Below are positions 1 to 19,176 of a stretch of DNA of 64,000 nt, one piece after another. The translations under genes and the position numbers were made by a program. Origin of the DNA: a virus. Positions within the stretch are counted from its first letter, which is position 1, and the number at the start of each line of letters is the position of its first letter. The notes under the pieces are model-generated. The model was not told the origin of the DNA. It saw nothing but the letters and a program-made list of their open reading frames with translations, and searched no databases. The stretch lies in IMG/VR virus record IMGVR_UViG_3300028837_001734, positions 26,161 through 90,160 of that record; one strand, 5' to 3'.

Positions 1-3000
1 TTTGACTAGCTAATAGAATATCCTGACCGCCTGTTATGATATCGCTAGATGCAACACCGATAGTGTCCGTAGAAACTCTCATAGTATCTGCAGCTATTTT
101 GGTATCATTTGCTGCTTGTCCTATTTGAGTTGCAGAAGCCTCTATATTTTCAAAGACTCGTGGGGCAGCAGGTTCTGCTACTTCCGGTTGTCTGATCTGA
201 GAGGATATACTTTCTAATGTGTTGACTAAATCAATCGGTAACTGTTCTGCTGCCCGTTGTGGATCTGTTAAAATATCAGGTTGTTGTATAACTTGCATAA
301 GAGATTTTGCCAATTCATCTGGAGTCAGATATTTAGCGCCAAGATAGTCAATTTCTGGCGCATCAGTAGCTTCGCTCATCTCTTGCAATTTTTTAGCAGC
401 AATCTGAGTAATCTCCTGTAAATCATTCATAGAAAGACCAGCATCTTTGACAGCCTGCGGAACATCATACAGAGAATTAGTCAATGCTTCAAAAGCTGCT
501 ACCTGTTTTTGCTCTTCTTCGGCTAAACCAAGAGTAGGACTATACATTCTTTGTTCGCTAACAATATAATCTCTTACAGTGTCAGCTAATACACCCATAG
601 ACGTTTCAATATTAGCACCCAATACTGCGGATTGTGCTAATCCTCTGTCAAATTGTGGTTTCCGTGGTTCCGTTAAATCTTTAATAGCACTTTTATCAAC
701 ACCACCTAAACCACGTTCAATATCTGCGGGAGTTAAAGCTGCAGTCCATACTTTAACAGCATCGCTACTTTCACGAAGTGCTTTAGCAAAAATCATTGCT
801 GGTTCTTCAAAAACCTGACCGACATCAAGAGCTACAGATGCTTCTATTTTTTGTCTACTTCTATTAAGCATCTCAGCCATTTGATCAAATTCTCTTTCTG
901 TTCTTTCAGCATTTTTGGCAATCCAAGTTATATCTACATCTTCTCCACCAAGTTCTTTTGTATATTCTTCTTGTATTCTTCTTAATGATTCAGGAGCTTT
1001 TTCAATAACCTTTTCAAAAAGTTCCATAGCATGCTGTAATCTCAAAACTTCTACACCTGTTTCTGCCGTAGCCTTTTCTAACCCTTCTTCCACAGGAATA
1101 AGACCTCGTCGTTGCTCAGATAATCTACGAGATTGTTCCCCAAATTTTCTAAATTGTACATCATATTGAGAAAGCAAATTTTCAGCAATACTAGTATCTC
1201 TTGCTAAATTTACCATAGCACGATCAAATTTACTAACAGAACCAAGTGTAAATGGAGTACCTAGTGGGCTTACCGCTTCAGTAACGAAGGAATCAATTTC
1301 ATTGCCAGTATTCTTATAAGCCTTTTGAAAACTTCTGCTGATAGTAGAACCTAGTTCTGCAGTCCTAACATCTACATCAGCAGCCAACGTGAAACCTTCA
1401 AGACGAAGTTTAATCTGTTGACTTTGTGCATCTAGCCATTGTTTGTAGACTTTTATAGCTGCATCAGTAAATGGAGTTTGTTGACCTAATACAGATTTCA
1501 AAGCTTCTGCAATTCTCTCTTCTTTTGGTACCAAATTCCCGCTAGAATCTATAATAGCTGTTTGTAGATTTGTTCCAAGAGTTGCCGCAGCGACTCTGAA
1601 AGCTTCTATTGCCTGTGGTGGTATTTTGTCTGGATACTCATCTATAAATTTCGCTATATATTCATCCATTATCTCTATAGGACTTACTTTAATATCTTCT
1701 AACTTAGCAAAGTCTGCAGATGCTGCTTCACTTTTTATAAGAGATTGGAAAAACAAATCAAGAGCATCCCCAACTTGTGCCAAATTAGTAGTAGCACCTG
1801 CTATATCTTCGAACTGACTAAGATCCAAAACTTCACCTATTCTCCCTGCTCTAGCTAATTCCTCTATAGCAGAAAGATCCCACTCAGTATCAAAACTTGG
1901 AAGACCTATATCACCACCAACAGTTTGACTTATTGCATCAAAAGTATCAACATTAGTTTGTATAGAAGCCGCTGCTCTAGAAACAGCTTCACTTAAAGTT
2001 TCTAATTCCCCAGATAAACGAACAGGTACATGAATTTTAGAAATATCATCAGTTACCTTTTCTGCAGCAGTAGCTAGACGATCAAGCTCACTAGGTATAC
2101 CTGCAGCGGGAATTTGCTTGGCTATTTCTCTTAAACCACCAGCCATTTTAATTATGACATCAGTAAATAAATTAGCGGCATATGTAGGATCTTCCACATC
2201 CTTAAATAAATCTGCAATTCCAATATCAACCAGACCAGCTTCTAATCCAGCAACGCCAAATTGTTCTATAGCTGCTGCCATGATTTGATTAAAACGTTCT
2301 GGATTAGCACCAATCATCGTTTCTATCATTTCACGAGCACGGCCCTCATCAATAATAGGACCAGTAAAAACACCAGCAAAGTCAAGATCAAAAATCTTAC
2401 TAATTTTAGTACCGACACGACCCCAAAAACTTTCATCAAGAACACCTGCGGCACCTTGAATATCTTTTATAAATGCATCACTAAAATCATTAATAGCATT
2501 ACTAAGACCACCAGCTTCATCAACGTCAATTGGAGTAAGTTCTATACTCTTAACTCTTTCAATCATTGCATCTTCAATTTGCTTGATATCAAAATCTACA
2601 GCTTTTTTACCTGCATAAGCCAATGCACCAAAAGCAGCAGTTACACCGGCAGCAGCAAGACCAACCGGTCCAAGGAAACCAGCTAAAGAAGCGAACAATC
2701 CTTGAAGACTTTTACCAGAAATTAACGCCGCAGCTCCGACGATTACAACAGCAGCCTTAGCGAATTCTGCAGCCATAATACCAGCAGAACCACCAGTCTC
2801 TTCAAACTTAGTACTAAGAGCATCAGCAGCAACAAATAACCCAGTCAAAGCAGCCATTTGTGCTATTTGATTACCAGCTACTGCTTTAGCCCCACCAGCC
2901 AATCTAGCACCAGCTCCAGCCGCAGCAGCCTGACCAACACCTAAACCAACTCCACCGCCAAGTCTATTTTGTACTCGTTGTCTTGCTGAAACACCAGCCG

Positions 3001-4549
3001 CACCACCTGCACCAGCACCAAGACCACCAGTTAAACCAGCCATTAATTGTGGCAAACCAACCGTTGATGCAGTAAGAAACGCCATAGCCTTACCAACACC
3101 AGTAGCAGCCAAAGCCAAAGCTTTCATACCAGCAGTGAATCCAATAACGGCAGTCAAAGCAGGAATAACAGGTTTAATGAAATCCAACATTGTAACAAAA
3201 GCATGACCAGCTTGTGTTGCACTTTGAATAAGAGGAATAAACAATGGTTCAGCCAATGTTTGCACTAACCTATTAAATTCCTGTCCAAGAATATTTAATT
3301 GAGCTTGTAGACCAGATAAACCTTCTTCTGCCACCCTTCCAAATTCACCAGCAGAATCACCAGCAGTGATTAATGCATTATCAAGCGTGTCTATATTGGT
3401 GGACAATGCAGCAAGACGACTAAATTGTCTTCTACCACCCAATTGAGTAAGAATAGCAACTCTATCTTGAACATTAGTTATATCTTTTAATGCATCAGCT
3501 ATTCTCCTAAAACCTTCTATTGCACCAACAAACTGACCTTCTTCAACAAGTTTAATACCTTTGCCTGTTAGAAAATCAATAATTTTAGGATCAGCCAGAC
3601 GAGAAGAAATAGTCTTGAAGAACGTACCAACCGTAGAAGCACTTTCTCTTGTAGCTTGTCTAACAGTTGTAAAAGCAGCAGCAAATTCCCTAAAAGTACC
3701 ACCAATAGCTTCAAAAGCAGCACCACCACGAGCAACACCAATAGCAATATCCTCGGCAGAAGCTGCATATTTATTGGATAAAGCCGTCATTACATCGAGT
3801 ATCTCTTCTGTTTTTAAACCCTCTTTATTAAACTGGTTAATAGCTGCAATGGTACCCTCAACTGCAGTGCTAACATTCTCAAACGAAGGAGTTAATGGAA
3901 CTTTAGCTAATGCCCCCAACGCTTCATTAAGTTGCTCTCCACGGAAACCAGCCTGAGCCATAGTTTTACTAATACCAGCCAATTCTGATGCTGATGTACC
4001 AGTAGCAGTAGAAAGATTTAAAATGGTATCCCTAAGACCAGAGACTTCATCTGTAGTCTGACCCATAATCTGTCGTAGTTTAAGGATAGCCCCATCGAAT
4101 TCGATAACAGCAGCAGTAGCCTTACTAAGACCACCAAGAGCAGCAAATGGAACAACGGTAGCAGTTAAGAATGCAGCATATCGTTTAGCAGCCAAACCAA
4201 CTGAATGACCAAAGTCATCTGCAGCTTTAGCTCCTCTTCTTTGAGCACCGGCAGCTTGATTAACAGCAGAAGAAGCTTTTTTAGAAGTAGCAGCTAATTT
4301 TGTATTAGCTTTGGATACCTTTTCAATAGCCGCAGCTTGGGTAGTAGCAGCAACAGCGACATTTTTCGCAGCAGATACGGCTGCTCCAGCACTACCGGCA
4401 GCAGCAACACCACCAACTGCACCAGCAACCCCACCAGCTCCACCAACACTAGCAGAACCGATCGCACTAGTGATAGCAGTTTGGACTTGTTTAAGACCAA
4501 CTATATCTTTAATACGAAGATTGACATCTAATACAAACGGTGCAGCCAC
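1..4549 (-). CDS. Tail tape measure protein, 3' end outside window
   Basis: The reading frame is open from a GTG at 4549 to the left edge, giving at least 1516 residues with no stop, so the gene is incomplete. It is Ala/Gly-rich and helical with long low-complexity stretches and several hydrophobic patches (near residues 115-140 and in the Gly-rich middle), as in phage tail tape measure proteins of the TP901 type. At about 1.5 angstrom per residue the visible part alone would specify a tail of more than 220 nm. The start is chosen from the AGGAG that overlaps the upstream gene's stop codon. Such proteins fill the tail tube, set its length and are ejected with the DNA. Gene size and position next to chaperone-like genes support the call. 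Confidence 0.88.
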   Translation of the reverse strand, partial: MAAPFVLDVNLRIKDIVGLKQVQTAITSAIGSASVGGAGGVAGAVGGVAAAGSAGAAVSAAKNVAVAATTQAAAIEKVSKANTKLAATSKKASSAVNQAAGAQRRGAKAADDFGHSVGLAAKRYAAFLTATVVPFAALGGLSKATAAVIEFDGAILKLRQIMGQTTDEVSGLRDTILNLSTATGTSASELAGISKTMAQAGFRGEQLNEALGALAKVPLTPSFENVSTAVEGTIAAINQFNKEGLKTEEILDVMTALSNKYAASAEDIAIGVARGGAAFEAIGGTFREFAAAFTTVRQATRESASTVGTFFKTISSRLADPKIIDFLTGKGIKLVEEGQFVGAIEGFRRIADALKDITNVQDRVAILTQLGGRRQFSRLAALSTNIDTLDNALITAGDSAGEFGRVAEEGLSGLQAQLNILGQEFNRLVQTLAEPLFIPLIQSATQAGHAFVTMLDFIKPVIPALTAVIGFTAGMKALALAATGVGKAMAFLTASTVGLPQLMAGLTGGLGAGAGGAAGVSARQRVQNRLGGGVGLGVGQAAAAGAGARLAGGAKAVAGNQIAQMAALTGLFVAADALSTKFEETGGSAGIMAAEFAKAAVVIVGAAALISGKSLQGLFASLAGFLGPVGLAAAGVTAAFGALAYAGKKAVDFDIKQIEDAMIERVKSIELTPIDVDEAGGLSNAINDFSDAFIKDIQGAAGVLDESFWGRVGTKISKIFDLDFAGVFTGPIIDEGRAREMIETMIGANPERFNQIMAAAIEQFGVAGLEAGLVDIGIADLFKDVEDPTYAANLFTDVIIKMAGGLREIAKQIPAAGIPSELDRLATAAEKVTDDISKIHVPVRLSGELETLSEAVSRAAASIQTNVDTFDAISQTVGGDIGLPSFDTEWDLSAIEELARAGRIGEVLDLSQFEDIAGATTNLAQVGDALDLFFQSLIKSEAASADFAKLEDIKVSPIEIMDEYIAKFIDEYPDKIPPQAIEAFRVAAATLGTNLQTAIIDSSGNLVPKEERIAEALKSVLGQQTPFTDAAIKVYKQWLDAQSQQIKLRLEGFTLAADVDVRTAELGSTISRSFQKAYKNTGNEIDSFVTEAVSPLGTPFTLGSVSKFDRAMVNLARDTSIAENLLSQYDVQFRKFGEQSRRLSEQRRGLIPVEEGLEKATAETGVEVLRLQHAMELFEKVIEKAPESLRRIQEEYTKELGGEDVDITWIAKNAERTEREFDQMAEMLNRSRQKIEASVALDVGQVFEEPAMIFAKALRESSDAVKVWTAALTPADIERGLGGVDKSAIKDLTEPRKPQFDRGLAQSAVLGANIETSMGVLADTVRDYIVSEQRMYSPTLGLAEEEQKQVAAFEALTNSLYDVPQAVKDAGLSMNDLQEITQIAAKKLQEMSEATDAPEIDYLGAKYLTPDELAKSLMQVIQQPDILTDPQRAAEQLPIDLVNTLESISSQIRQPEVAEPAAPRVFENIEASATQIGQAANDTKIAADTMRVSTDTIGVASSDIITGGQDILLASQ

Positions 4550-4562
4550 TTAGATCACGCTC

Positions 4563-5480
4563 CTATTTTTCCACCTTCTTCTTAACCCTTTTTCTGGTAG
4601 TTGTCTTTTTTGTTTTCTTTCGTTTAGCAATAGATATCTCACCAATCCCAGCGACAACAACTGATTCACCAGTCTCATCATCTATAAATGGTTTAGCCAT
4701 TTCTATTAATAGATTGCCTTTTTCATCAATAGCTCTACCATGAGCGTCCACCATTTGACCACGTTGATCTAGGTAAACACCATCTTCATTGACAGATCTA
4801 CCATTTTTATCTACAAACTCTCCTTTGTTATTAACAAACCTACCCTCATCATCAATCAAACCAGCTTCTTTAAGCCATCTCATCTCAAACATACTGATCT
4901 GTATATTTTCTTCAACATTGTAAACTATATTAGCTAATTCCTTAGCACCAGCCACAACAGCTTCTTCTGTCTGGCGATTAATATAGTCATCATGACCTCT
5001 AAGATATTGTGCACCAGTCTCAGCATTGACTAAACATTTGGTTAATAAAAATTCAAACCGAAAATTTTCTGCCTGAGCCTCAACAGTAGCAGAATCAAAT
5101 TGTTGTCTTTTCTCATGGAGATCAAGAATAGCACGTCTTTTTTCTGACATTTCAATAGCTAATTGACGTGCTTCAGATATCTTCATTCCACCCTTTTTGA
5201 GTTGCAATTCTGCTGCACGGATTTCTAGGGATAGTGCTTCAACTTTTAAATTATCTCTCATTGTCCATATACCAGTTTTAGATAAATAATTTTCCAGTTC
5301 TGCTCGCAATAACAATCTCTGATCTGGAGATTCAGCTCCTTTCCTTATTAAAACAGATACTTTTAAATTATATGCTAAATTAGCATCTTGATTTAATCTA
5401 TTAGTTGGTTTTATGATAGCTAATTTTATAGGCTTACCATCTTTGTCAATAGTGTCAAAAGTTTTCCTATTACCATCCAT
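4563..5480 (-). CDS. Tail-module protein with seven-residue Gly/Asp repeats
   Basis: A 305-residue protein directly upstream of the tape measure gene, where tail assembly chaperones usually lie; its function is inferred from that position only. Residues 75-150 are helical and charged. Residues 210-258 contain seven consecutive seven-residue repeats of the form DxxGxxV (for example DDEGRFV, DKNGRSV, DAHGRAI). The last 20 residues are almost all Lys, Arg and Thr. Its ATG overlaps the upstream stop as TAATG, so the two are translationally coupled. I see no convincing slippery site for the frameshift typical of tail chaperone pairs. Confidence 0.7.
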   Translation of the reverse strand: MDGNRKTFDTIDKDGKPIKLAIIKPTNRLNQDANLAYNLKVSVLIRKGAESPDQRLLLRAELENYLSKTGIWTMRDNLKVEALSLEIRAAELQLKKGGMKISEARQLAIEMSEKRRAILDLHEKRQQFDSATVEAQAENFRFEFLLTKCLVNAETGAQYLRGHDDYINRQTEEAVVAGAKELANIVYNVEENIQISMFEMRWLKEAGLIDDEGRFVNNKGEFVDKNGRSVNEDGVYLDQRGQMVDAHGRAIDEKGNLLIEMAKPFIDDETGESVVVAGIGEISIAKRKKTKKTTTRKRVKKKVEK

Positions 5481-5836
5481 TATTTTCCTCCCAATTCAAA
5501 TTTATATCCTTCAAAATTGATACTATGCAGATCAATTTCCATGACCAAAGCACGTGATTGAGTATTACCTTTATCTAAAATGTGCTTTCTAACCTGTTCC
5601 CATCTTTGTCTATTAGCCAATTGTGCTGGCGTTAATTCTCCATCGGGTAATCCATGTCCCCAAACATCTAAACCAAATACATTTTCAAATTCTGCTAGCG
5701 CAGATATAAAACATGTCCTAAACTTTTTGGTAGCTATTTTCTTTAGACGTTCTTTCGAATCATGTGCAATACGACTTTTGGATTCCTGTCTCGATGCATT
5801 ACGAAGTTGCACTAATTTACGTTCAGTATCACTCAT
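5480..5836 (-). CDS. Tail-module protein, possible tail assembly chaperone
   Basis: A 118-residue basic, helical N-terminus followed by a short motif FGLDVWGHGL near residues 53-62. It lies two genes upstream of the tape measure gene and its stop is fused to the next start (TAATG). The start follows GGGAATGTC. Position suggests a tail assembly chaperone, but no domain is recognised. Confidence 0.65.
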   Translation of the reverse strand: MSDTERKLVQLRNASRQESKSRIAHDSKERLKKIATKKFRTCFISALAEFENVFGLDVWGHGLPDGELTPAQLANRQRWEQVRKHILDKGNTQSRALVMEIDLHSINFEGYKFELGGK

Positions 5837-5844
5837 GACATTCC

Positions 5845-6930
5845 CTATCTTTGGTTAATACTTTTAACGTGAGTTTTTCTCATGTCCATAAATTGTGATT
5901 TCATTTCCCTTTGGGAATCTGGCATATTTTGTTCTGCGACATTGCCATGTTTTTGTAATAGTTGTTGTTTTGCACGTATCTTAGCTCTGCTAGTTGGATC
6001 ATTCATATCATACACTTTTTTAGCACCATCTTGATCAGACATAACAAAAACCTCATTACGACCGTTCTTTTTACCTTTTGGTAAATCTTGTATTTTTTGA
6101 GATTTATCTTTAATCTTTTCACCTTGACGAATAAACCAAGAATCCAATAAATCATCATCATTAATAATATCTTCCGATGGTCTCTCATAAGCAGAATAAA
6201 CGGAATCGTATAGAGAAGACCAATGAGCTAATTCTCTTTGATTATAAGACCAAGATACAATAGAACCATCGAATAATACTCCATTATGTTTAGCCGTATC
6301 CCAATAAACTCTCCATTGTTGTGATCGGGCAAGTTCTCTGATAACAGAAGTAGCTATTCTAGACCTATAGAAATATATCTCACACAATTGCATTATTAAA
6401 TTACTATTATCACCTTGCTCAAATTCTGCTTCAGTTGGCCAAAGCAATTCTCCATCTAATTTCTCTGTTATTCGTCCTACGGTGAAACGTTGTTGATGAA
6501 GAATAGCATTAGCTTCTGCGCTTATTTGTGTCAAATTATTTCTACGAGATAATCTTTCTATTAAAGCTTTTTCTGCATTGCGAAGCATTTTTCTAGCTTG
6601 TTCTAATTTCGTTGTATTAAATACAAAATCCAATAATCCACGACGTATTGTGTGAATATCTTGTTTAAGCCCTTCGATTTCAAATTCTAATTGTTCACTC
6701 CATTGACCAAGATTAATCAAACTACAAATAACATCATTCTCTGATAATAATCCTAAAAGAATACCATAATCATATTGAGTGTCATAAATAGATGCTGCAC
6801 GGACTTGCTCATCTGGTGTGGGAGGACGCAAAAAGAGTTGAATCAATTGGCCATCCTGTATGTTTATAGTTGCTAAAATTTTATTACAACTTATCTTAGC
6901 GATAAGTCGCTCCTTTTCAGCCATATTCAT
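5845..6930 (-). CDS. Tail-module protein of unknown function
   Basis: A 361-residue mostly helical protein. The frame is open further upstream to 6999, but the ATG at 6930 follows a clear GGGAAGG and is preferred; a second ATG two codons later is also possible. The C-terminal third is charged (DDLLDSWFIRQ, then Lys/Gln-rich). It is the first gene after a promoter-like motif at 6991-7000 and leads the unit that ends with the tape measure gene, so a role in tail assembly is likely. No family is recognised. Confidence 0.7.
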   Translation of the reverse strand: MNMAEKERLIAKISCNKILATINIQDGQLIQLFLRPPTPDEQVRAASIYDTQYDYGILLGLLSENDVICSLINLGQWSEQLEFEIEGLKQDIHTIRRGLLDFVFNTTKLEQARKMLRNAEKALIERLSRRNNLTQISAEANAILHQQRFTVGRITEKLDGELLWPTEAEFEQGDNSNLIMQLCEIYFYRSRIATSVIRELARSQQWRVYWDTAKHNGVLFDGSIVSWSYNQRELAHWSSLYDSVYSAYERPSEDIINDDDLLDSWFIRQGEKIKDKSQKIQDLPKGKKNGRNEVFVMSDQDGAKKVYDMNDPTSRAKIRAKQQLLQKHGNVAEQNMPDSQREMKSQFMDMRKTHVKSINQR

Positions 6931-6990
6931 AACATACCTTCCCAGTCCCAAAATCAAAGTGGTACTGACTATCCATATCCTATCCCTATC

Positions 6991-7000
6991 ATTATACACA
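6991..7000 (-). promoter_or_regulatory. Late-type promoter motif
   Basis: TGTGTATAAT on the minus strand, 60 nt upstream of the tail-module gene and just downstream of a terminator. It is one of about twelve copies of this motif in the window. Confidence 0.6.
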
Positions 7001-7006
7001 TTGTCA

Positions 7007-7038
7007 ATAAAAAGGCCGCAGGCATGAAGCCTACGGCC
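7007..7038 (-). terminator. Rho-independent terminator
   Basis: The minus strand reads GGCCGTAGGC, a 5-nt loop, then GCCTGCGGCC followed by five T. The hairpin (7014-7038) ends the gene at 7071-7625. Confidence 0.85.
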
Positions 7039-7070
7039 AAGTAGAGGGAAGTAATGATGTCAGAAATTCA

Positions 7071-7625
7071 TTAGAAGTATCTTTGTTCCTTCAGATTTGT
7101 TGGCAGACATTCCACAATCGCCAAAAGTTCTACAGGAGTTGAACCGTTGACCCCAACAGCATCTTCAGCCTGGACAGACAGGGTTGTTCTCAGTGACCCA
7201 CCCTTTGGAACCGAAACATATGTTGTATCCATAGCCACACCAGTTGTGCTGACATAACCAGATTGCGAAGGAGCTTTGAATAGTAGTGTGTCAGTATTTG
7301 AAACAACACCAGACAAATTCACACTAACAACATTATCCCAGGCTGCAGTAGTTGGAGCAGCAGGAGAAGCGTCAACTTCATCAGAACTCTGTAGAGCGAC
7401 TGTGAAATTAGAACCACCACCGTCGAAACCAGACCCAACCACAGAAGTACTATGAACCTCAAATCCTATAACATCTACATTAAATGGACAATCTTTGCTG
7501 AAAAATGTCTCTGTGTCGGTCACTGCAGAACCAGATACAGCAGTAGCTGATAATGTTTTGTACACCTTAAATGTTTTCGGTGTCGGATTAAGATTTGCTC
7601 CAAAATTGTCGGTCACTAGAGTCAT
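7071..7625 (-). CDS. Probable virion structural protein
   Basis: A 184-residue Ser/Thr/Val-rich, beta-strand-rich protein with no signal peptide. It has its own promoter motif (7706-7715), a strong GGAGG seven bases before the ATG, and its own terminator, so it is a single-gene unit, as expected for an abundant decoration or fibre-like structural protein. No family is recognised and the role is inferred from composition and context. Confidence 0.65.
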   Translation of the reverse strand: MTLVTDNFGANLNPTPKTFKVYKTLSATAVSGSAVTDTETFFSKDCPFNVDVIGFEVHSTSVVGSGFDGGGSNFTVALQSSDEVDASPAAPTTAAWDNVVSVNLSGVVSNTDTLLFKAPSQSGYVSTTGVAMDTTYVSVPKGGSLRTTLSVQAEDAVGVNGSTPVELLAIVECLPTNLKEQRYF

Positions 7626-7705
7626 GGCGTTACCTCCATTAAAAGTAAGGCTGCAAAGATTCTAATCCTACGCAAGATTAAAGGCTAAGCAGATTCACCT
7701 AGAAG

Positions 7706-7715
7706 TTTATACACC
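7706..7715 (-). promoter_or_regulatory. Late-type promoter motif
   Basis: GGTGTATAAA on the minus strand, 81 nt upstream of the structural gene at 7071-7625. Confidence 0.6.
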
Positions 7716-7764
7716 AAAAAATGCCAGACGCATAAGATATAATGAGATTTACTGCCTGATATGA

Positions 7765-8220
7765 TTAATTAGGGAAATTGATATGTGCAAATTCTCCAAA
7801 ATATTGTTTAGCAGCCGAATCATATGCTTTTGCCGCATCCTGTTCTTGCAAAAAATATCCTAAATGTTTCTTCTTACCATTGATGCGGATGGCAGCGTGC
7901 CATTTGCTGTTATATTTATTAAAGCAGACACCCTTAAACCTAGAAGTTCTTTTTTGTGTTAGATGTAAGTTGGCCATATTTTGTGATCTAGTGGCTATCC
8001 TTAAATTACAACGACGATTATCACACCCGTTATTGTTAATATGATCAATTTCAAGCCCATTTGGATTATTCATTAAAAAACGATGCATGGATTGTTTTTT
8101 CCCATCAATTTTTGCCCATGCATAGCCGTTAGAGTAACACCACGATCTAACAATCAAATTGCTGTAATCCATGTCGTCGACTATCGCAACTTTCCCTTGT
8201 GTTAATGGTATAGTTTGCAT
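7765..8220 (-). CDS. HNH-AP2 homing endonuclease
   Basis: A 151-residue free-standing endonuclease. Residues 45-85 carry the HNH_3-type core (MHRFLMNNP, then EIDHINNNGCDNRRCNLR). Residues 92-148 form an AP2/ERF-like DNA-binding domain (SRFKGVCFNKYNSKWHA, then GYFLQEQDAAKAYDSAAK). Proteins of this layout are mobile homing endonucleases common in phages. It sits between tRNA-Gln and a structural gene with only a weak ribosome site, fitting an inserted selfish gene. Confidence 0.9.
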   Translation of the reverse strand: MQTIPLTQGKVAIVDDMDYSNLIVRSWCYSNGYAWAKIDGKKQSMHRFLMNNPNGLEIDHINNNGCDNRRCNLRIATRSQNMANLHLTQKRTSRFKGVCFNKYNSKWHAAIRINGKKKHLGYFLQEQDAAKAYDSAAKQYFGEFAHINFPN

Positions 8221-8276
8221 AATAAAATTCGAGCCCTATTCCTGGAGAGCTACTCATCGCCATGCACTGTTCAAAT

Positions 8277-8350
8277 CAGGCCGGGCAGGACTCGAACCTG
8301 CAAGCATCCTGGATCAAAACCAGACGTTCTGCCAATTGAACTACCAGCCC
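8277..8350 (-). tRNA. tRNA-Gln (anticodon TTG)
   Basis: Cloverleaf on the minus strand: acceptor GGGCTGG paired with CCGGCCT (first pair G-T), D-arm, anticodon stem TCTGG/CCAGG with loop TTTTGAT (anticodon TTG), T-arm GCAGG-TTCGAGT-CCTGC, discriminator G as is usual for Gln. CCA is not encoded. Confidence 0.93.
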
Positions 8351-8381
8351 ACTGCAAAGTCATTTTTTATAGGATTCTAGT

Positions 8382-8639
8382 TTACTCTGCGTCTATTTTT
8401 AGACCAAGATTTCGAGCAATCTCGATAATCGCCTGACGGAAATCTTTGGTACGACCAGCCTTTATATCTTCCATGCTTTTTTCCAACAGATGTAAACTCT
8501 GTCTCATTTCTTCGTCTTGCATAAATTTCTCAAGACAATCTACACATCTGGTAGCTTCATATGGTTTTCTACCTGGACAATCAATTCCGGATCTTTTACG
8601 ACATTCAAAACAAAGAATTCCAGTTTCTTTCTCTATCAT
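8382..8639 (-). CDS. Small zinc-finger-like protein
   Basis: An 85-residue unknown protein. Four cysteines in two CxxC-like pairs (CFEC at 10-13 and CVDC at 32-35) suggest a zinc ribbon in the N-terminal half; the rest is helical. It overlaps the upstream gene as ATGA and ends 31 nt before tRNA-Gln. Confidence 0.65.
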   Translation of the reverse strand: MIEKETGILCFECRKRSGIDCPGRKPYEATRCVDCLEKFMQDEEMRQSLHLLEKSMEDIKAGRTKDFRQAIIEIARNLGLKIDAE

Positions 8640-8863
8640 AAGATTTCCAATTCCTCTAATTCTATTTTATCTAGGGCCAACTGTGTATTGATAACTATTG
8701 CCATAGCCTGTATTGCTCCTCTGTCTATATCAATATTAATATCGCCATCGACCAATCTACGAGCCTGGTCACTCATATTTGCACCAATACCCCAAGCGTC
8801 TTTCAGTTTCTTTAAGTAATCATCCCTATGTTTTATTAACAGTACCTTATTTTTTATATCCAT
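8636..8863 (-). CDS. Unknown small phage protein
   Basis: A 75-residue helical, acidic protein with no recognised domain. It is coupled to the next gene by a four-base overlap and follows tRNA-His on the same strand. Confidence 0.55.
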   Translation of the reverse strand: MDIKNKVLLIKHRDDYLKKLKDAWGIGANMSDQARRLVDGDINIDIDRGAIQAMAIVINTQLALDKIELEELEIL

Positions 8864-8881
8864 TGTGTTATCCTATTTTAA

Positions 8882-8952
8882 TACCAACGACAGGAATCGA
8901 ACCTGTACTTCCTGGTCCACAGCCAAGCGTTCTTCCGTTAAACTACGTCGGC
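8882..8952 (-). tRNA. tRNA-His (anticodon GTG)
   Basis: Minus-strand cloverleaf: acceptor GCCGACG with CGTTGGT, D-arm GTTT...GAAC, anticodon stem CTTGG/CCAGG with loop CTGTGGA (anticodon GTG), T-arm ACAGG-TTCGATT-CCTGT. CCA is not encoded. The 5' end overlaps the last 15 nt of the upstream coding sequence. Confidence 0.93.
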
Positions 8953-9174
8953 TTCTGTTATCAAAGCTTCTAATGTCTCAAGAGTAGCACGAGAAACAAC
9001 AACCATTGGGCCTTTCCCATGAGTATAATCAGCGGCAGTCAATAAACCACGAACTACGTCTCTCATAGCTTCTGCAGATTCGTGCATTTTACAAAATGTC
9101 AAGAAATCAAAACCATCACTGGTAAAACCACAGTGACATCCACAATCTTTTTCGTGTGTAATTTCAATGCTCAT
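8938..9174 (-). CDS. Unknown small protein ending inside tRNA-His
   Basis: A 78-residue protein with an N-terminal His/Cys cluster (CGCHCGF) that could bind metal. The start at 9174 follows GGAAGAGGCGG and overlaps the upstream gene. The stop codon TAA lies within the D-arm of tRNA-His, so coding sequence and tRNA share 15 nt. No family is recognised. Confidence 0.6.
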   Translation of the reverse strand: MSIEITHEKDCGCHCGFTSDGFDFLTFCKMHESAEAMRDVVRGLLTAADYTHGKGPMVVVSRATLETLEALITEADVV

Positions 9175-9415
9175 CACCGCCTCTTCCAACTACTAATACA
9201 TCATTTTTACCTAGCGAACAAATAGAGTGAGCACCGTTTTCATGTAGTGTCCACAAATGAATCACCCTATTATTAGTAGGACATGGTATAGTAAACCAAC
9301 TCCTACCATTAAGGATCGCATGTGTCTTTTCTAAACATTGCAATCTCTTTATCTGGAATTCCTGATCTTTGATGATTTTTTGTGCCCATTTAGGTAGTTT
9401 TTTTACATCGTGCAT
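9164..9415 (-). CDS. Unknown small protein, LPKW-helix type
   Basis: An 83-residue protein. It starts with LPKWAQKIIKDQEFQIKRL, an amphipathic helix seen at the N-terminus of many small phage proteins. Start at 9415 is set by the TGATG overlap with the preceding gene. Function unknown. Confidence 0.6.
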   Translation of the reverse strand: MHDVKKLPKWAQKIIKDQEFQIKRLQCLEKTHAILNGRSWFTIPCPTNNRVIHLWTLHENGAHSICSLGKNDVLVVGRGGDEH

Positions 9416-9891
9416 CAGTCGCTCACACAAAATTCTGGACAATCAAATCTCATTTCCAAACCATACATCTTCATGTGTAGCTTACCTCTGACACCACGTT
9501 CTAGTAATACTTCTATGAAGCTGTCATCACCATCTGGGTACACCATAGAATCATACATAAGATTAGCGGCTAGCCTGACTTCAGCATGATGATCGAAACA
9601 AATAATCTTTGGTCTTCGTCCGTACTTTTCATGGAACTTTAATATCATCCTCTGTATTGTATGTCTGATGTTGGCACGACCGAATCTACGGAGCAATGAT
9701 TCATCTTCTCTCATTACCTGAGCAGCTATATGTTGTTGACGATCAAAATTATCCATAGCCTTTTGCATATCTTGTCCTACTGCCTCCCAATCCTTATAAG
9801 CCAATGGACAAATATCATACACGCATTCACATTCTTTACCACAATCTTCACATTGCTGAAATTCTCGTTTTCCTAATTCATTTTCGCACAT
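9415..9891 (-). CDS. Unknown protein with N-terminal Cys cluster
   Basis: A 158-residue protein. Residues 14-28 hold four cysteines (CEDCGKECEC) and more follow, suggesting a zinc site. The middle is helical and the end beta-rich. AAGGAG precedes the ATG at the right distance. No family recognised. Confidence 0.6.
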   Translation of the reverse strand: MCENELGKREFQQCEDCGKECECVYDICPLAYKDWEAVGQDMQKAMDNFDRQQHIAAQVMREDESLLRRFGRANIRHTIQRMILKFHEKYGRRPKIICFDHHAEVRLAANLMYDSMVYPDGDDSFIEVLLERGVRGKLHMKMYGLEMRFDCPEFCVSD

Positions 9892-9932
9892 AAATCTACT
9901 CCTTAGGAAACTTCCGTGGTTTCGGACAATTT

Positions 9933-10031
9933 CTAATTTTCATCTTCTTTTCCCCAGTAAAAAGAGTCAAGATAGGCATCGATAATCCATACTAAAACTA
10001 ATGGTCCAAAACCAATAACCCATACCATCAT
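9933..10031 (-). CDS. Tiny membrane protein (32 aa)
   Basis: ATG at 10031 overlaps the stop of the upstream gene. The peptide has one hydrophobic segment (VWVIGFGPLVLVWIIDAYL) and an acidic C-terminus. It is one of several very small one-helix membrane peptides in the window. Ribosome site weak; function unknown. Confidence 0.45.
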   Translation of the reverse strand: MMVWVIGFGPLVLVWIIDAYLDSFYWGKEDEN

Positions 10032-10321
10032 TCTGTAACTCTACTAATACCATCCTTAGTTTTTATCTTAGCAACTCTAAATCCTAAAATCCTATCATCT
10101 TGTTCGTTCATGAGCATCTGGATAACATTTTCCCTATCACTAACAAGACCATTCAATAAGCCTATTAACCTTAATCTACCATCCATCGTAACTTGAACTG
10201 TAGGATGATCAATCATTTCTTGATCTGCGTGAATAGAAATATTAAGCAACATCTTATTAACAGTTTCTTCATCCTGATCTAATGCACTATTCAGAAAAGC
10301 TACCACTTGATTCATTGTCAT
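10028..10321 (-). CDS. Unknown small acidic phage protein
   Basis: A 97-residue acidic helical protein. The ATG at 10321 follows GGGAG by eight bases; an in-frame upstream extension to 10351 lacks a ribosome site. No domain recognised. Confidence 0.55.
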   Translation of the reverse strand: MTMNQVVAFLNSALDQDEETVNKMLLNISIHADQEMIDHPTVQVTMDGRLRLIGLLNGLVSDRENVIQMLMNEQDDRILGFRVAKIKTKDGISRVTE

Positions 10322-10347
10322 TTTAAGAACTCCCAATAATTTCAGTT

Positions 10348-10521
10348 TCAATAAAGCGTTTCCTCTTCTAATCCTATATCTAAAGCTATCCTTCTAGCTA
10401 ATAAATCAGCACCTTTACAACCTCCTTCTATAATTATAGCATCTTTCGGAAGTCTACGCAACCTATCTTCGATGGTTTTTATGTTTAACCACCTTCTGTC
10501 ACCACAAACAATTACTTTCAT
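10348..10521 (-). CDS. Truncated DUF2493 (SLOG-type) protein
   Basis: A 57-residue protein starting MKVIVCGDRRW, then a helix, then IIIEGGCKGADLLARRIA. This is the nucleotide-binding Rossmann start of DUF2493/YspA-like SLOG proteins, which normally run to about 120-130 residues and end with an ADW...GP.RN motif. Here a stop follows at about half length, so this is a short form, a decayed gene or an assembly error. The Nextera adapter begins only 14 nt upstream, so the natural upstream region is missing. Confidence 0.65.
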   Translation of the reverse strand: MKVIVCGDRRWLNIKTIEDRLRRLPKDAIIIEGGCKGADLLARRIALDIGLEEETLY

Positions 10522-10534
10522 ATTAATTCCACAC

Positions 10535-10610
10535 CTGTCTCTTATACACATCTCCGAGCCCACGAGACTAGGCATGATCTCGTATGCCGTCTTCTGCTTG
10601 AAAAAAAAAA
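10535..10610 (+). other. Illumina Nextera adapter contamination
   Basis: The plus strand reads the Nextera transposase end (CTGTCTCTTATACACATCT, then CCGAGCCCACGAGAC), an 8-base index TAGGCATG at 10569-10576, the P7 end ATCTCGTATGCCGTCTTCTG plus CTTG, and ten A. This is synthetic sequence. Its translations give the well-known artefact peptides FFFQAEDGIRD and EMCIRDR. The two flanks may not be adjacent in the real genome. Confidence 0.99.
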
Positions 10611-10894
10611 GGTACACAATCTCCACATCTAGGTCTCAACGAATCATCCTTATCTATCCCTTTGCAAAAACAACCAAGCACTTTGCCTTTCAATTTTGCT
10701 ATTCGTGCAGCAAATTCTGGATCAGTCCGCAATCTATCATAAAAATGTATATAATATAAATCTAGAACCTCGTCACGATTACCATTTCGTCCAATTATAA
10801 ATGGATTCCCAAAATAACCATCCTGTCCATTACCAGCTCTCCCTATATACACATCATATTTATCATGTTTAATATTTACAACAGTAGTTTTCAT
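10611..10894 (-). CDS. DUF4326 protein, C-terminus cut by adapter
   Basis: About 94 residues of genuine coding sequence before the adapter. The start (VVNIKHDKYDVYIGR), then GNPFIIG, RDEVLDLYYIHFYDRL and LKGKVLGCFCKG match the DUF4326 family, small phage and bacterial proteins of unknown function with a conserved C-C-H/C cluster. The final cysteine region is present only in part (RCGDC) and then runs into adapter. ATGA overlap with the upstream gene sets the start. Confidence 0.75.
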
Positions 10895-11972: not shown

Positions 11973-12992
11973 CTAAAATACTACGATCTCTGTAGATCCA
12001 AGCAAGAACTGAATCAATCTACCCATCCCCAAACCAAAACCACTTCTAATTAAAGTATTATGACTACGGCATCCTCTTTTGTCATCTGAGGAAAGGTTTA
12101 AATAAGATACAAAGGGAGCCCAACTAGCTTGCTCGACTTTTGTATTAACTACACCACCATTAGTTTGATCAGCACGAATTTTCGTCATCTGCTGAAACAT
12201 TAAACTTTCTCTTAATTTAATACTAAGAGTTCTATAATCTTCTTCCCGTCTCGATCCGCCGAAAGTTTCACCAGCCCAAGGTAAAAGCAAATCAACACAA
12301 TCGACAGTAAATCTATTTTCATTATATTCCTCAATAGGCATATTTGCTTTTAATGGTTCACGACAAGTACGATACATATTGAAAAACTTGATGGATTCTG
12401 GATAATGCGTGACCTGAACAGGACCTTCAAATAGAACACATATCATTTCTTCAACATTAGAAGTAAAATCATCACCCCAATTGATAGAAACACCACGGTT
12501 ACTCAACATTTCAACTACTTCTGTATAAGTGATGATCTTAGCTGGACTATCCAAAAAACCCTCAAGTCTCCGTCGATGTTCCGTACTAATACAATCTGAT
12601 TGTAAAGCCGTACTAATCGCAGCATTTAGAATTTTCTGTTGGAATAAAAGTAAAGCCTTTAAGTCAAAATTTAAAGATTCAAATTCAAGCAATGCAAATT
12701 CAGCCAGATGACGTCCATCACCAGCCTTAGGTTCATTTCGATAACTACGTCCCAAAGTCCAGACACCAGGAAGACCATGTTGTAAAATTTCTGCTTCCAT
12801 CAATAACTGATCTGTTTGTGATAGATATGCTAATTGTGGAGTATTCTGCAAAATAAAAGCTGTTGGTACATTTTCACACGCCCCAGTACCACCAGTAATT
12901 TTATTATAATATGATTCCACCACATCGCTATCATACATAACAGCTCTAATCTTATCTAATACGTCAGCCTTAAGTTTAATCAATTCCTTCAT
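11973..12992 (-). CDS. Asparaginyl-tRNA-synthetase-like catalytic domain (AsnA/AS-AR type)
   Basis: A 339-residue class II aminoacyl-tRNA synthetase core without the N-terminal anticodon-binding OB fold. Motif 2 is GRSYRNE at 81-87 followed by GRHLAEFALLEFE. A GETFGGSRREE segment matches the GE-IGGS-RE signature of AsnRS/AspRS, and motif 3 is GFGLGMGRL at 318-326. Stand-alone AsnRS cores of this size are known in archaea as asparagine synthetases (AS-AR) that amidate free aspartate; whether this one makes asparagine or charges tRNA is open. The protein ends sooner after motif 3 than usual. AAGGAT precedes the ATG, which directly follows the upstream stop. Confidence 0.82.
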   Translation of the reverse strand: MKELIKLKADVLDKIRAVMYDSDVVESYYNKITGGTGACENVPTAFILQNTPQLAYLSQTDQLLMEAEILQHGLPGVWTLGRSYRNEPKAGDGRHLAEFALLEFESLNFDLKALLLFQQKILNAAISTALQSDCISTEHRRRLEGFLDSPAKIITYTEVVEMLSNRGVSINWGDDFTSNVEEMICVLFEGPVQVTHYPESIKFFNMYRTCREPLKANMPIEEYNENRFTVDCVDLLLPWAGETFGGSRREEDYRTLSIKLRESLMFQQMTKIRADQTNGGVVNTKVEQASWAPFVSYLNLSSDDKRGCRSHNTLIRSGFGLGMGRLIQFLLGSTEIVVF

Positions 12993-13301
12993 TTATTTAT
13001 CCTTTTTCATGTGTTTAAATTGCTCAATTTGCTTGAGTCTATCCTCAGCCTGTTTCCTCGACGAATAACATCCCAACTTCTTTCCGGTCTTGCTATAAAT
13101 ACAAAATGGTTTACTATCAGGACCATCTTTACGAATTACAGCATCAGTTTTTAAAGCTTCTAATAATTCTTCATTCCAATCTGTCACTGAACGTTCACCC
13201 CTTTTCAAAATTTCTTCTTTATCAAGATAATATTTATATGGCGTATTTCCTTTTCTCCTGCGTTTTCTGCGTGTTTGACTTTTATTAGTGCGAGTACTCA
13301 T
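12993..13301 (-). CDS. Small basic protein with FKH-type C-terminal motif
   Basis: A 102-residue protein. The N-terminus is very basic (SQTRRKRRRKG). The C-terminal part reads KPFCIYSKTGKKLGCYSS, then AEDRLKQIEQFKHMKK, a small domain found in many phage and bacterial unknowns ending in FKH. ATG at 13301 is chosen; a GTG at 13331 is in frame but has no ribosome site. It is directly followed by the synthetase-like gene. Confidence 0.6.
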   Translation of the reverse strand: MSTRTNKSQTRRKRRRKGNTPYKYYLDKEEILKRGERSVTDWNEELLEALKTDAVIRKDGPDSKPFCIYSKTGKKLGCYSSRKQAEDRLKQIEQFKHMKKDK

Positions 13302-13339
13302 GTGATACCAACTCAGTCCAACAGCAGCCACTATACGAA

Positions 13340-13564
13340 TTAATAGGACACCTCAGCAGTCTTGGCCCAATCATCCCATTCATCAATATCTACTTGTTTT
13401 CGAATCGGTTCAGGTTCTACTATAGTACCTAATGGCTGATCAACTATTACTTCATAAAATACTTGACTCATTGAAACATCTAAAACAAATCTACGTTCGA
13501 TACCCCATTCGGAGTCATTCCTGACGAATTTAGAATACGTACAACCCATTTCGGGTGTTAACAT
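13340..13564 (-). CDS. Unknown small protein
   Basis: A 74-residue protein whose start is set by the TAATG overlap with the upstream gene. It is acidic at the C-terminus (DIDEWDDWAK). No recognised domain. Confidence 0.5.
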   Translation of the reverse strand: MLTPEMGCTYSKFVRNDSEWGIERRFVLDVSMSQVFYEVIVDQPLGTIVEPEPIRKQVDIDEWDDWAKTAEVSY

Positions 13565-13794
13565 TATTCCAAAGCCCCTTCCCATCCGTGTAAAAGCTTA
13601 TCATTATTATCAAAAAATAATTCACCACATACATCCATATTTCCTGAACATGCAGATAAATCCCACCCATATATATTAGTTAATAAATCACAGCCAGGTA
13701 GAATAAATAAACATAACAATATAATTATCCATATTGGGACCATAAATTTAATAACCGTTTGCCAAGAATTATTTTGATAACGATAGTCTCTCAT
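13564..13794 (-). CDS. Small membrane or lipoprotein-like protein
   Basis: A 76-residue protein with one hydrophobic segment (VPIWIIILLCLFILPGC, about residues 18-35). The LPGC end resembles a lipobox but has Pro at -2, so a simple membrane anchor is as likely. The C-terminal half with three further cysteines would be outside. The ATG at 13794 follows GGGG; the upstream stop overlaps the ribosome site. Confidence 0.5.
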   Translation of the reverse strand: MRDYRYQNNSWQTVIKFMVPIWIIILLCLFILPGCDLLTNIYGWDLSACSGNMDVCGELFFDNNDKLLHGWEGALE

Positions 13795-13796
13795 AA

Positions 13797-14003
13797 TTAT
13801 CCCCATCCACTACCAGATGCTCTTTTCCGAGCACTAGGAGGTTTCTTTAAAGGAGGAAAACGTCTATAAATTTCACGTGCTTTCAATTTATCAAGTTCTC
13901 TATGCCATGCTTCTTCTCTTGCTGGAGTCCAGGCATTAGGACTACCAATAGAATCTAAAATAGTTTCATCAGGTTTTGACAATCCATCCTTGTTTCTACT
14001 CAT
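13797..14003 (-). CDS. Unknown small basic protein
   Basis: A 68-residue protein, basic C-terminus (KKPPSARKRASGSGWG). The true start is the ATG at 14003 after AGGAAGG; the frame further upstream merely reads through tRNA-Thr. No domain recognised. Confidence 0.5.
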   Translation of the reverse strand: MSRNKDGLSKPDETILDSIGSPNAWTPAREEAWHRELDKLKAREIYRRFPPLKKPPSARKRASGSGWG

Positions 14004-14024
14004 CTCATAATTTTCCTTCCTAAG

Positions 14025-14098
14025 AGCCGCGAGAGGGATTCGAACCCTCGACATTTGGTTTACAAAACCAACGCTCTGTCCAACTGAGCTATCACGGC
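14025..14098 (-). tRNA. tRNA-Thr (anticodon TGT)
   Basis: Minus-strand cloverleaf: acceptor GCCGTGA/TCGCGGC, D-arm GCTC...GAGC, anticodon stem TTGGT/ACCAA with loop TTTGTAA (anticodon TGT), T-arm GAGGG-TTCGAAT-CCCTC. CCA is not encoded. Its first seven bases are shared with the end of the upstream gene. Confidence 0.94.
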
Positions 14099-14316
14099 TG
14101 CTGAGATAAAAGGCGATCCACAACTACTTTCATAGTAGGATCTAAATCTGAATAATAGCAACCTTTTACCCATCTGCCATGAACAAAAGCGGCATAGCAT
14201 ACAGTAGCTACTTCTATATCTTTAGGTGTTTTACCGTCAACATCTACATCAAGCCAATAATTAGAAGTAACACTATTAGTAGTTTTGTTACAATTCATAC
14301 ATCTAGCCAGTGGCAT
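14092..14316 (-). CDS. Small CxxC protein ending inside tRNA-Thr
   Basis: A 74-residue protein beginning MPLARCMNCNKTT, a CxxC knuckle typical of small zinc-ribbon phage proteins. The TGA stop is the TGA of the tRNA-Thr acceptor stem, a 7-nt overlap. Function unknown. Confidence 0.6.
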   Translation of the reverse strand: MPLARCMNCNKTTNSVTSNYWLDVDVDGKTPKDIEVATVCYAAFVHGRWVKGCYYSDLDPTMKVVVDRLLSQQP

Positions 14317-14322
14317 ATTAAC

Positions 14323-14847
14323 CTACTTTCTATCACAAACACAATTCTCCTCAGATTTCGGAACAATAGTTATTTGGAGATCATTCTCATCCCAATTAAC
14401 ATTATTAGTCCTGCACACTAATACATCAGTCGCTTTATCAACAAGAGCTTTACATCCATTATTAATTTGCACTTCCTCTAATGCGACAATAACAGGATGC
14501 TTTTTGGTACATTCTGCAAGATATTTTTTCCAAATAGCAGTACGGCATGGTTTATCAAGATCACTAACCCATAATGCATCTCTAAGAGCTATCTTTCTAC
14601 CAAGAGATTTGGAAAAAGTATCAATAGGATGACAAATAGCAAGACCATAACCAACTATTTCATCATCAACAAAGACCCCAGCAATTGTACATTGTCTAAT
14701 CCATGATACATCTTGATCATCAATATAATCGAGGACTTCACAAGCTAAATGATTTACATCTATAGCATCTAGTAAAGTTTCTTTATTAAATCGACCATGC
14801 TCAAATCTAATTGCAATATTCTTAGATGAAAATTCCAATTTTAACAT
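14323..14847 (-). CDS. Unknown phage protein (174 aa)
   Basis: A 174-residue alpha/beta protein with a central SLGRKIALRDAL helix. AGAGAGG precedes the ATG. The last residues (CVCDRK) run up to the next gene. The GRK-AL motif occurs in several small phage unknowns; no function can be named. Confidence 0.6.
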   Translation of the reverse strand: MLKLEFSSKNIAIRFEHGRFNKETLLDAIDVNHLACEVLDYIDDQDVSWIRQCTIAGVFVDDEIVGYGLAICHPIDTFSKSLGRKIALRDALWVSDLDKPCRTAIWKKYLAECTKKHPVIVALEEVQINNGCKALVDKATDVLVCRTNNVNWDENDLQITIVPKSEENCVCDRK

Positions 14848-15570: not shown

Positions 15571-17625
15571 CTAGCTTTTAGACAGATAACGATTCCCTAC
15601 AACTTTTAATTGAACACGCCCAAGTCGACGTTCGGTACGTTCATGTATTGGCTTGATAACTACCCCTTCTCGATAATGCTCTGCAGAAGATATGGAGCTA
15701 TCCCCATCTGCGAACTCAATAATCTTGTCTTTGTCAAAAGGTCCACGATAAACAAGTGGAACCCACGGGATACCTGCCGCCAATTTGCGGGCTTCGTCGT
15801 GATCAAGCCATCTGTTTCCTTCTAAGATATCAAAAGCAGCAAACCAAACAACGCCATTTGGTGCTCCATATTTAAGATTCTGGACCTGCCCATAAACTTC
15901 ACCATAAACGACAAGATCCTGATTATGTCTGCACCAACTTTCTAGTGCTGTATTATTCGCAAGAGCTTTCCACCATAAATTCTGTGGATCCTGTTTTTTC
16001 CAATGCTTACGAGATCCAGCAAACATCTTATCATTTATACACATAAATCTTGAGTTACAATTATGTATTAATACACCATTAGCAAAATAATTATGCGTAC
16101 CAGTTTCTAAATCGTATCTTTGTCTATTTTCTGATATACGATCAATAGAAGTGATGGTTTGATCGACATATACAGATTTATATGAATTGTCTTTTGAGGG
16201 CATCCATCCGTCATGACCACGATAACGTTCTGGAAGTTTATATTGCATAACCTGTGGAATATACGGTGCGATTATCAGAAACAACTTTTCAGCATCATTG
16301 GAATTAAGCCTCAGTCTCCAGCCTGACGAATTGTATTTGATGGCATGTATATCGAATTTGACCAAAGCCAATACTAGATTATCCACACTAAATTCAGAAA
16401 ATCCATTCGTCGCAAATACAACCCTGTCTTCTTGGTCCTCGTGATGACACAAACTACCATCATCCATATACCAAAATGCTAAAGCTATTGGAGTCAATTT
16501 TGGCACAATCGATGTCGGAACCTCCTTGTGCCCGTCTACAAACCAATCGTTGAAAAGATCTTTGATAAATGCGCTAGAAACAGTTCTACTTCTGGTCATC
16601 AGTGTTCCATATCCACTTATATGGTCTGTCTGTCTGTTACCGCACATTGTTCCTAGCGCTTGTTCCGTATATAGTAGATATTCTTCGTGATCTTTTTTAT
16701 GACTGAATTTAATGAAACCAGAAGAATCATTGCAGTCATAACTACCATCACCAAGCATCTTACCAATTAAGACCTGTTCCTGTATTGGTGTTAGTTCTAA
16801 CTCTGATCTTACCAGCCTAATAGTATCACCAACTGCCAGATGTTTAGCTTCAAGAAAACCGTTGTCAGAGTCTCCAAAATCAGTTTGTGTGACCACAAAA
16901 ACTTTATGATTAGGAGTACATTTTAACGAGCCAAAATAACTGCCTCGTCCAGCTCTGTGTCTATCAAACGTAATTTTCAACCATTCGTTACCTAAACCAT
17001 TTTTATAAACACGTTTTACACTGGTAGATACAATACTGTTAGAAGTAAAATCATATCCTAAAACTTCTCCATCATAATCTGAATCAACCAATTCTTGTAT
17101 TCGTTGTCTCTGACCGTTCGGCAACGAAATTCGTGCCTGAGATTGTACACATCCATGAATTTTTTCAGTAACAATTACTTCTTCGCCGTCTTTGAACAAA
17201 CGAGCATATTTTCTGAAATTCAGAACATCATATGTTGGAAAGAATCCCTTTGGGGCAACAACATTATCGCCACCAGTGCTAAAATGTCCGTGTACTTGTG
17301 GTTCGTAATGAGTCACACCAAGTGCTTCCATACAGTCATCACCGATCTTGGCTCCACCCGGTGCTGGCACCAATAGCCCCATGGACCATTCTCCCCTGAG
17401 TTTCTTTACTTTAATTCTGTAATGTCCTTTTAGAAAAGCAAATGTCTTTGTTTCCGGGACAACACTGTCTGGTGGGATGTAAACGGCAAGATCTCCATCT
17501 CGCCAATCTGCTGTACGGACAGCACACTGAAAATCACCAACATCAACAAGACTAAGTGAATTAGCATTTGGATGAGATCTTAACTTGATCGCTACTACAT
17601 CGCAAGTGTGTTCTGCTACTTTCAT
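15571..17625 (-). CDS. RNA ligase (DraRnl/Rnl5-like) interrupted by an intein
   Basis: A 684-residue precursor. Residues 1-150 form an N-terminal OB-like domain (SLSLVDVGDFQCAVRTADW), as in Deinococcus DraRnl. The nucleotidyl-transfer motif I is TEKIHG, with the AMP-accepting Lys at 155. The intein occupies residues 159-522. The C-terminal extein carries motif III (VYGEVYG), motif IIIa (WFAAFDIL), motif IV (EGVVIKP, near 653) and motif V (QLKVV, near 671). The spliced enzyme would be 320 residues. RNA ligases join nicked RNA ends and help phages repair cleaved tRNA, which fits the neighbouring tRNAs. It starts directly at the stop of the previous gene (ATG at 17625). Confidence 0.9.
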   Translation of the reverse strand: MKVAEHTCDVVAIKLRSHPNANSLSLVDVGDFQCAVRTADWRDGDLAVYIPPDSVVPETKTFAFLKGHYRIKVKKLRGEWSMGLLVPAPGGAKIGDDCMEALGVTHYEPQVHGHFSTGGDNVVAPKGFFPTYDVLNFRKYARLFKDGEEVIVTEKIHGCVQSQARISLPNGQRQRIQELVDSDYDGEVLGYDFTSNSIVSTSVKRVYKNGLGNEWLKITFDRHRAGRGSYFGSLKCTPNHKVFVVTQTDFGDSDNGFLEAKHLAVGDTIRLVRSELELTPIQEQVLIGKMLGDGSYDCNDSSGFIKFSHKKDHEEYLLYTEQALGTMCGNRQTDHISGYGTLMTRSRTVSSAFIKDLFNDWFVDGHKEVPTSIVPKLTPIALAFWYMDDGSLCHHEDQEDRVVFATNGFSEFSVDNLVLALVKFDIHAIKYNSSGWRLRLNSNDAEKLFLIIAPYIPQVMQYKLPERYRGHDGWMPSKDNSYKSVYVDQTITSIDRISENRQRYDLETGTHNYFANGVLIHNCNSRFMCINDKMFAGSRKHWKKQDPQNLWWKALANNTALESWCRHNQDLVVYGEVYGQVQNLKYGAPNGVVWFAAFDILEGNRWLDHDEARKLAAGIPWVPLVYRGPFDKDKIIEFADGDSSISSAEHYREGVVIKPIHERTERRLGRVQLKVVGNRYLSKS
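16060..17151 (-). mobile_element. Intein with LAGLIDADG homing endonuclease
   Basis: A 364-residue intein inside the RNA ligase. It starts at Cys 159 (CVQSQARISLPNG, block A), has block B CTPNHKVFVV, two LAGLIDADG-type helices (VLIGKMLGDGS and LAFWYMDDGSL), and ends GTHNYFANGVLIHN before Cys of the C-extein. All class 1 splicing residues are present (Cys1, His in block B, His-Asn end, Cys+1), so it should splice. The insertion point lies directly after the KxxG active-site motif, a typical intein site. Confidence 0.93.
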
Positions 17626-19099: not shown

Positions 19100-19176
19100 G
19101 AGTGGCTCTATCACCTAAAAGAAAATGGAAAGGAGGTGAAGCGCAATGCGCGGCCACAGGGCTATGTACATTATAC

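What the first reader, a model, noticed from the sequence alone, without database searches (positions are those of the whole stretch)
10535..10610. Complete Nextera adapter embedded in the contig
The plus strand carries the transposase end, an 8-base index (TAGGCATG), the P7 end and a run of ten A. This is not biological. A read running off its insert was assembled and joined to other sequence through the A-run, so the linkage between 1-10534 and 10611-64000 is unproven. The two genes beside it are cut (DUF2493 on the left, DUF4326 on the right), and database copies of the artefact peptides exist.
Basis: partly seen in the sequence, partly recalled or inferred. Interest (0 to 1): 0.75.

Follow-up and report, generated by a model that had tools for sequence, protein, structure and literature searches.

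The report
Sequencing adapter inside a phage contig
Seventy-six bases in this virus sequence are leftover laboratory adapter from the DNA sequencer, not biology, but a related phage has the same genes in the same order on both sides, so the surrounding sequence is most likely joined correctly.

Summary
Window 10535-10600 is the Nextera read-through sequence (Tn5 mosaic end, read-2 primer complement, index TAGGCATG, P7 complement), then exactly ten A (10601-10610). It is the only adapter in the 90,160-base phage record. The same element sits in at least 120 IMG/VR stretches, nearly always at contig ends. In that sample the A-run piles up at exactly ten, and in two-colour data A10 is followed by poly-G. 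So the ten A read as template, most likely copied from the T10 linker of the flow-cell oligo. The molecule would then end at 10610, and the join to 10611 was made in software.

The main inference, that the linkage is unproven and perhaps a misjoin, is not supported. A related 160-kb phage contig is collinear on both sides (59 of 64 matching ORFs in order, all on the matching strand) and carries the two flanking domains, DUF4326 and YAcAr (DUF2493), 48 bases apart in one fused ORF. The adapter interrupts true neighbours, probably at a cost of at most a few tens of bases.

YAcAr is not cut by the adapter at its start; DUF4326 has probably lost its C-terminus. Adapter contamination of assemblies is already documented. 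Interest is low.

The parts
10535..10553 (+). Tn5 mosaic end (Nextera), CTGTCTCTTATACACATCT
   Evidence: exact match; only copy in window
10554..10568 (+). complement of the Nextera read-2 primer tail, CCGAGCCCACGAGAC
   Evidence: exact match
10569..10576 (+). 8-base i7 index TAGGCATG (Nextera N706, from memory)
   Evidence: 33 of 125 adapter copies in the IMG/VR sample carry this index
10577..10600 (+). complement of the P7 end, ATCTCGTATGCCGTCTTCTGCTTG
   Evidence: exact match
10601..10610 (+). ten A, read as complement of the T10 linker of the grafted P7 oligo; inferred physical end of the sequenced strand
   Evidence: A-run pile-up at exactly 10 in other contigs; A10 then poly-G in L071 and L095
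10348..10521 (-). YAcAr (SLOG, formerly DUF2493) domain, 57 aa, start codon intact, short C-terminus
   Evidence: PF10686 E 3.6e-9; 67% identical over 52 aa to L003
10611..10894 (-). DUF4326 domain, about 94 aa, C-terminus probably lost at the adapter
   Evidence: PF14216 E 3.2e-14, profile 3-72 of 82; 57% identical over 77 aa to L003
10348..10626 (-). artefact ORF (92 aa) whose first part is adapter: MEIVYLFFFKQKTAYEIMPSLVGSEMCIRDR...
10568..10894 (-). artefact ORF (108 aa): DUF4326 running into an adapter frame, ...CVPFFFQAEDGIRDHA*
4563..6999 (-). left-side anchor genes with collinear relatives in L003/G001
12993..14847 (-). right-side anchor genes with collinear relatives in L003/G001

Best explanation
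A tagmented library fragment of this phage ended at window base 10534. Its read ran through the whole adapter, index and P7 end, and on through the ten bases copied from the T10 linker of the flow-cell oligo. The untrimmed read entered the assembly. The assembler then joined that contig tip to the next piece of the same phage genome at 10611, most likely because read pairs spanned a thin or broken spot. The join keeps the true order and orientation of the two flanks. It interrupts or replaces probably no more than a few tens of bases between the DUF4326 and YAcAr domains, which in relatives form one protein. Shown: adapter identity, uniqueness in the record, collinearity with a relative on both sides. 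Inferred: that the A10 is linker copy, and that read pairs drove the join.
For: Exact adapter parts. In a sample of 125 adapter copies in IMG/VR, 112 end the contig with a pure A-run of 0 to 15 bases; 50 of these are exactly 10 and only 11 are longer; in L071 and L095 A10 is followed by 24 and 19 G. Relative L003/G001: DUF4326 and YAcAr lie 48 bases apart in one 212-aa ORF. Of 64 record ORFs with hits, 59 are in order and all are on the matching strand, with 18 anchors left and 46 right of the adapter. The phage flanks read without the 76 bases stay in frame through both domains, as in the relative. GC content and skew do not change at the join.
Against: No reads were available, so no spanning pair was seen. 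The relative is only 31-86% identical at protein level, so synteny cannot exclude a join between two close strains. The DUF4326 tail here (GIDKDDSLRPRCGDCVP) lacks the CH[AG][DE] motif of relatives, so some codons may be missing, and how many cannot be told.
Confidence: 0.9

Rival explanations
1. Misjoin: the adapter tip was linked to an unrelated stretch, so the two sides are not neighbours.
For: Adapter tips are known to break contigs (PMC11536531); the sequence beyond A10 cannot come from the same molecule if A10 is its end; no identical 25-mer flank was found elsewhere to confirm the join.
Against: Collinearity on both sides, with the two flanking domains fused in the relative and adjacent here, in the same order, strand and frame.
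Confidence: 0.03
2. Strain chimera: the left side comes from one phage and the right side from a close relative in the same sample, joined at the shared locus.
For: Synteny alone cannot exclude it, and metagenomes often hold several strains (inference).
Against: No change in composition at the join; nothing positive points to it.
Confidence: 0.06
3. Circular contig whose ends were joined after assembly, as appears to have happened in published T4-like isolates.
For: G4507, G10400 and KAW1E185 carry the adapter next to 55-base direct duplications, SaPL next to a 259-base one; G4507, KAW1E185 and SaPL match relatives on both sides.
Against: The window has no duplication across the adapter: its two 600-base flanks share no long match.
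Confidence: 0.01
4. A real Tn5-type transposon end in the phage genome.
For: The first 19 bases are the Tn5 mosaic end.
Against: The index, P7 end and A10 follow exactly; no second end or target duplication is present.
Confidence: 0.001

Closest known systems
Adapter contamination in microbial genome databases (Moeller et al. 2024, PMC11536531)
   Same: Untrimmed Illumina adapter carried into assemblies, usually at contig extremities
   Different: That study counted the TruSeq universal adapter and dealt with contig ends; here a full Nextera adapter with A10 is internal and bridges two flanks
Adapter copies in published phage isolates (MK327946 G4507, MK373781 KAW1E185, MH973725 SaPL)
   Same: Nextera adapter and A-run inside a complete-genome record, splitting or lengthening genes; flanks are neighbours in relatives
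   Different: Those carry a 55- or 259-base duplication, as from joined contig ends; the window has none
DUF4326-SLOG fusion proteins of phages (Myxococcus phage Mx1 WNM70115.1; fusions noted in PMC9503650)
   Same: Same two domains in the same order
   Different: Here separated by the adapter, and the SLOG part is only 57 aa

Membership tests
Illumina Nextera read-through adapter | Mosaic end, read-2 tail, 8-base index, P7 complement in this order without gaps | tested here: met
Illumina Nextera read-through adapter | A10 from the oligo linker at the end | tested here: met
   the T10 linker of Illumina's own oligo is from memory, and a 10-T version of the same primers is printed in PMC11123353
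Assembly misjoin | Flanks not neighbours in relatives | tested here: not met
Assembly misjoin | No spanning read pairs | not testable with these tools
   no reads held
Joined ends of a circular contig | Duplication on both sides of the adapter | tested here: not met
DUF4326 (PF14216) | Score above Pfam gathering cut-off | tested here: met
   53.8 bits against 25
YAcAr SLOG (PF10686) | Score above Pfam gathering cut-off | tested here: met
   36.7 bits against 28.2, profile 1-54 of 66

The most novel reading that the evidence does not exclude
With the artefact set aside, the phage has a single DUF4326-YAcAr fusion gene, as in its relative, but with a SLOG domain that stops after 57 residues and an unusual cysteine-rich linker (RPRCGDCVPC) between the domains.
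Probability: 0.35. Interest if true: 0.2.

Novelty: not a real feature. Interest (0 to 1): 0.1.

Why it matters
Anyone using this record should mask 10535-10610 and ignore the two artefact ORFs, but need not split the contig there. More generally, an internal adapter is not by itself proof of a misjoin: in the cases checked against relatives here (this record and three published phage genomes) the flanks were true neighbours.

Tried and rejected
Exact 25-base flanks on either side gave no other IMG/VR contig. A search with the aminoacyl-tRNA-synthetase-like gene at 11973-12992 gave no relatives. Searches with only the DUF4326 tail failed (wrong frame, then query too short), and a phage search with that tail found no homologue of its cysteine-rich part, so the number of lost bases stays open. 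No paper was found with the full T10-P7 oligo searched for or with the artefact peptide CIRDR. A duplication across the element (Tn5 target site or joined contig ends) was looked for and is absent.

Full report
What is there. Window 10535-10610 holds, without a mismatch, the Tn5 mosaic end, the read-2 tail, an 8-base index, the P7 complement and ten A. The mosaic end occurs nowhere else in the window, and no other adapter sequence occurs in the whole 90,160-base IMG/VR record of which the window is bases 26161-90160. A blastn of 5 kb around the site against named phages gave 75 records, and every listed match lies at query 1518-1611, which is the adapter. It is a laboratory sequence.

Of 125 copies, 122 lie at contig ends and 3 are internal. 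Among the 112 that end in nothing but A, run lengths 0 to 9 occur 4 to 6 times each, length 10 occurs 50 times, and only 11 are longer. In L071 and L095 the A10 is followed by 24 and 19 G, the signature of two-colour chemistry with no template left. The ten A therefore behave as template. The oligos grafted on Illumina flow cells carry a ten-T linker (from memory); a paper on home-made surfaces prints the same primers with ten T added (PMC11123353). If so, the sequenced strand ends physically at 10610, and the step from 10610 to 10611 can only have been made by software.

Are the two sides neighbours? Searching IMG/VR with the YAcAr fragment gave L003, part of a 160-kb phage contig. There, DUF4326 matches 7722-7952 and YAcAr 8001-8156, 48 bases apart, in one open frame of 212 aa that scores for both Pfam families. 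Genes from both sides of the adapter map in the same order and on the matching strand. Extending this to most of the record against 96 kb of the relative, 64 of 107 ORFs have hits, 59 of them in one increasing series, 18 left and 46 right of the adapter, with every hit on the matching strand. The few out of series look like paralogues or moved genes. A random misjoin would not place the two halves of a known domain fusion next to each other in the right order, strand and frame. Composition is also smooth.

What was lost. Left of the adapter, YAcAr begins with an intact ATG at 10521. Right of it, DUF4326 runs to ...LGCFCKGIDKDDSLRPRCGDCVP and then into adapter. Relatives have C-F/W-C, a spacer of 4 to 10 residues, then CH[AG][DE]. 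That CH motif is missing here, so a few codons may be lost. Read without the 76 bases, the flanks give one frame through both domains, which fits the relative but would also happen by chance about one time in three. Between CFCK and the YAcAr ATG the window keeps 63 real bases against 48 in the relative, so the loss is probably small or nil. The true bases cannot be given from this evidence.

Other internal cases. In three T4-like isolates the same adapter lies next to exact 55-base duplications, and in Pseudomonas phage SaPL next to a 259-base one. Those of them compared with relatives (G4507, KAW1E185, SaPL) match on both sides. These look like circular contigs whose overlapping ends were joined after assembly (inference). 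The window has no such duplication, so it looks like a bridged gap and not a joined circle.

Verdict. Adapter carry-over is documented (PMC11536531). What remains untested is direct read support.

Noticed in passing
window 15571-17625 (-): RNA ligase interrupted by an intein with a LAGLIDADG endonuclease. Pfam Intein_splicing covers 166-522; the insert seems to run from the Cys just after EKIHG, in the ligase catalytic motif, to ...GVLIHN before CNSRF.
   Followed up: partly
L148 about 6700-7970 (-), large terminase of the relative G001: The relative's large terminase carries an insert starting CASKDTLTLYGDG and ending ANGFYSHN, with the look of an intein; the window's terminase (44298-46460) has none. 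The relative's terminase also changes frame further on.
   Followed up: partly
window 19174-19520 (-): tmRNA gene, Rfam RF00023 at 141 bits over the full model, tag peptide DKVQLAMAA; ARAGORN also finds tRNAs for Gln, His, Thr, Ile and Met.
   Followed up: partly
window 10348-10521 (-): The YAcAr (SLOG) domain is only 57 aa; relatives continue for about 60 more residues. The early stop is about 190 bases from the adapter and seems unrelated to it.
   Followed up: partly
window 11973-12992 (-): Class II aminoacyl-tRNA synthetase-like protein (PF00152) of 339 aa, with no relative found in viral contigs.
   Followed up: no
L132, L133, L134, L135 around 1501-1640: Published complete phage genomes with internal Nextera adapters next to 55- or 259-base duplications; in G4507 the tail lysozyme gene is annotated as two pieces at the adapter.
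   Followed up: yes
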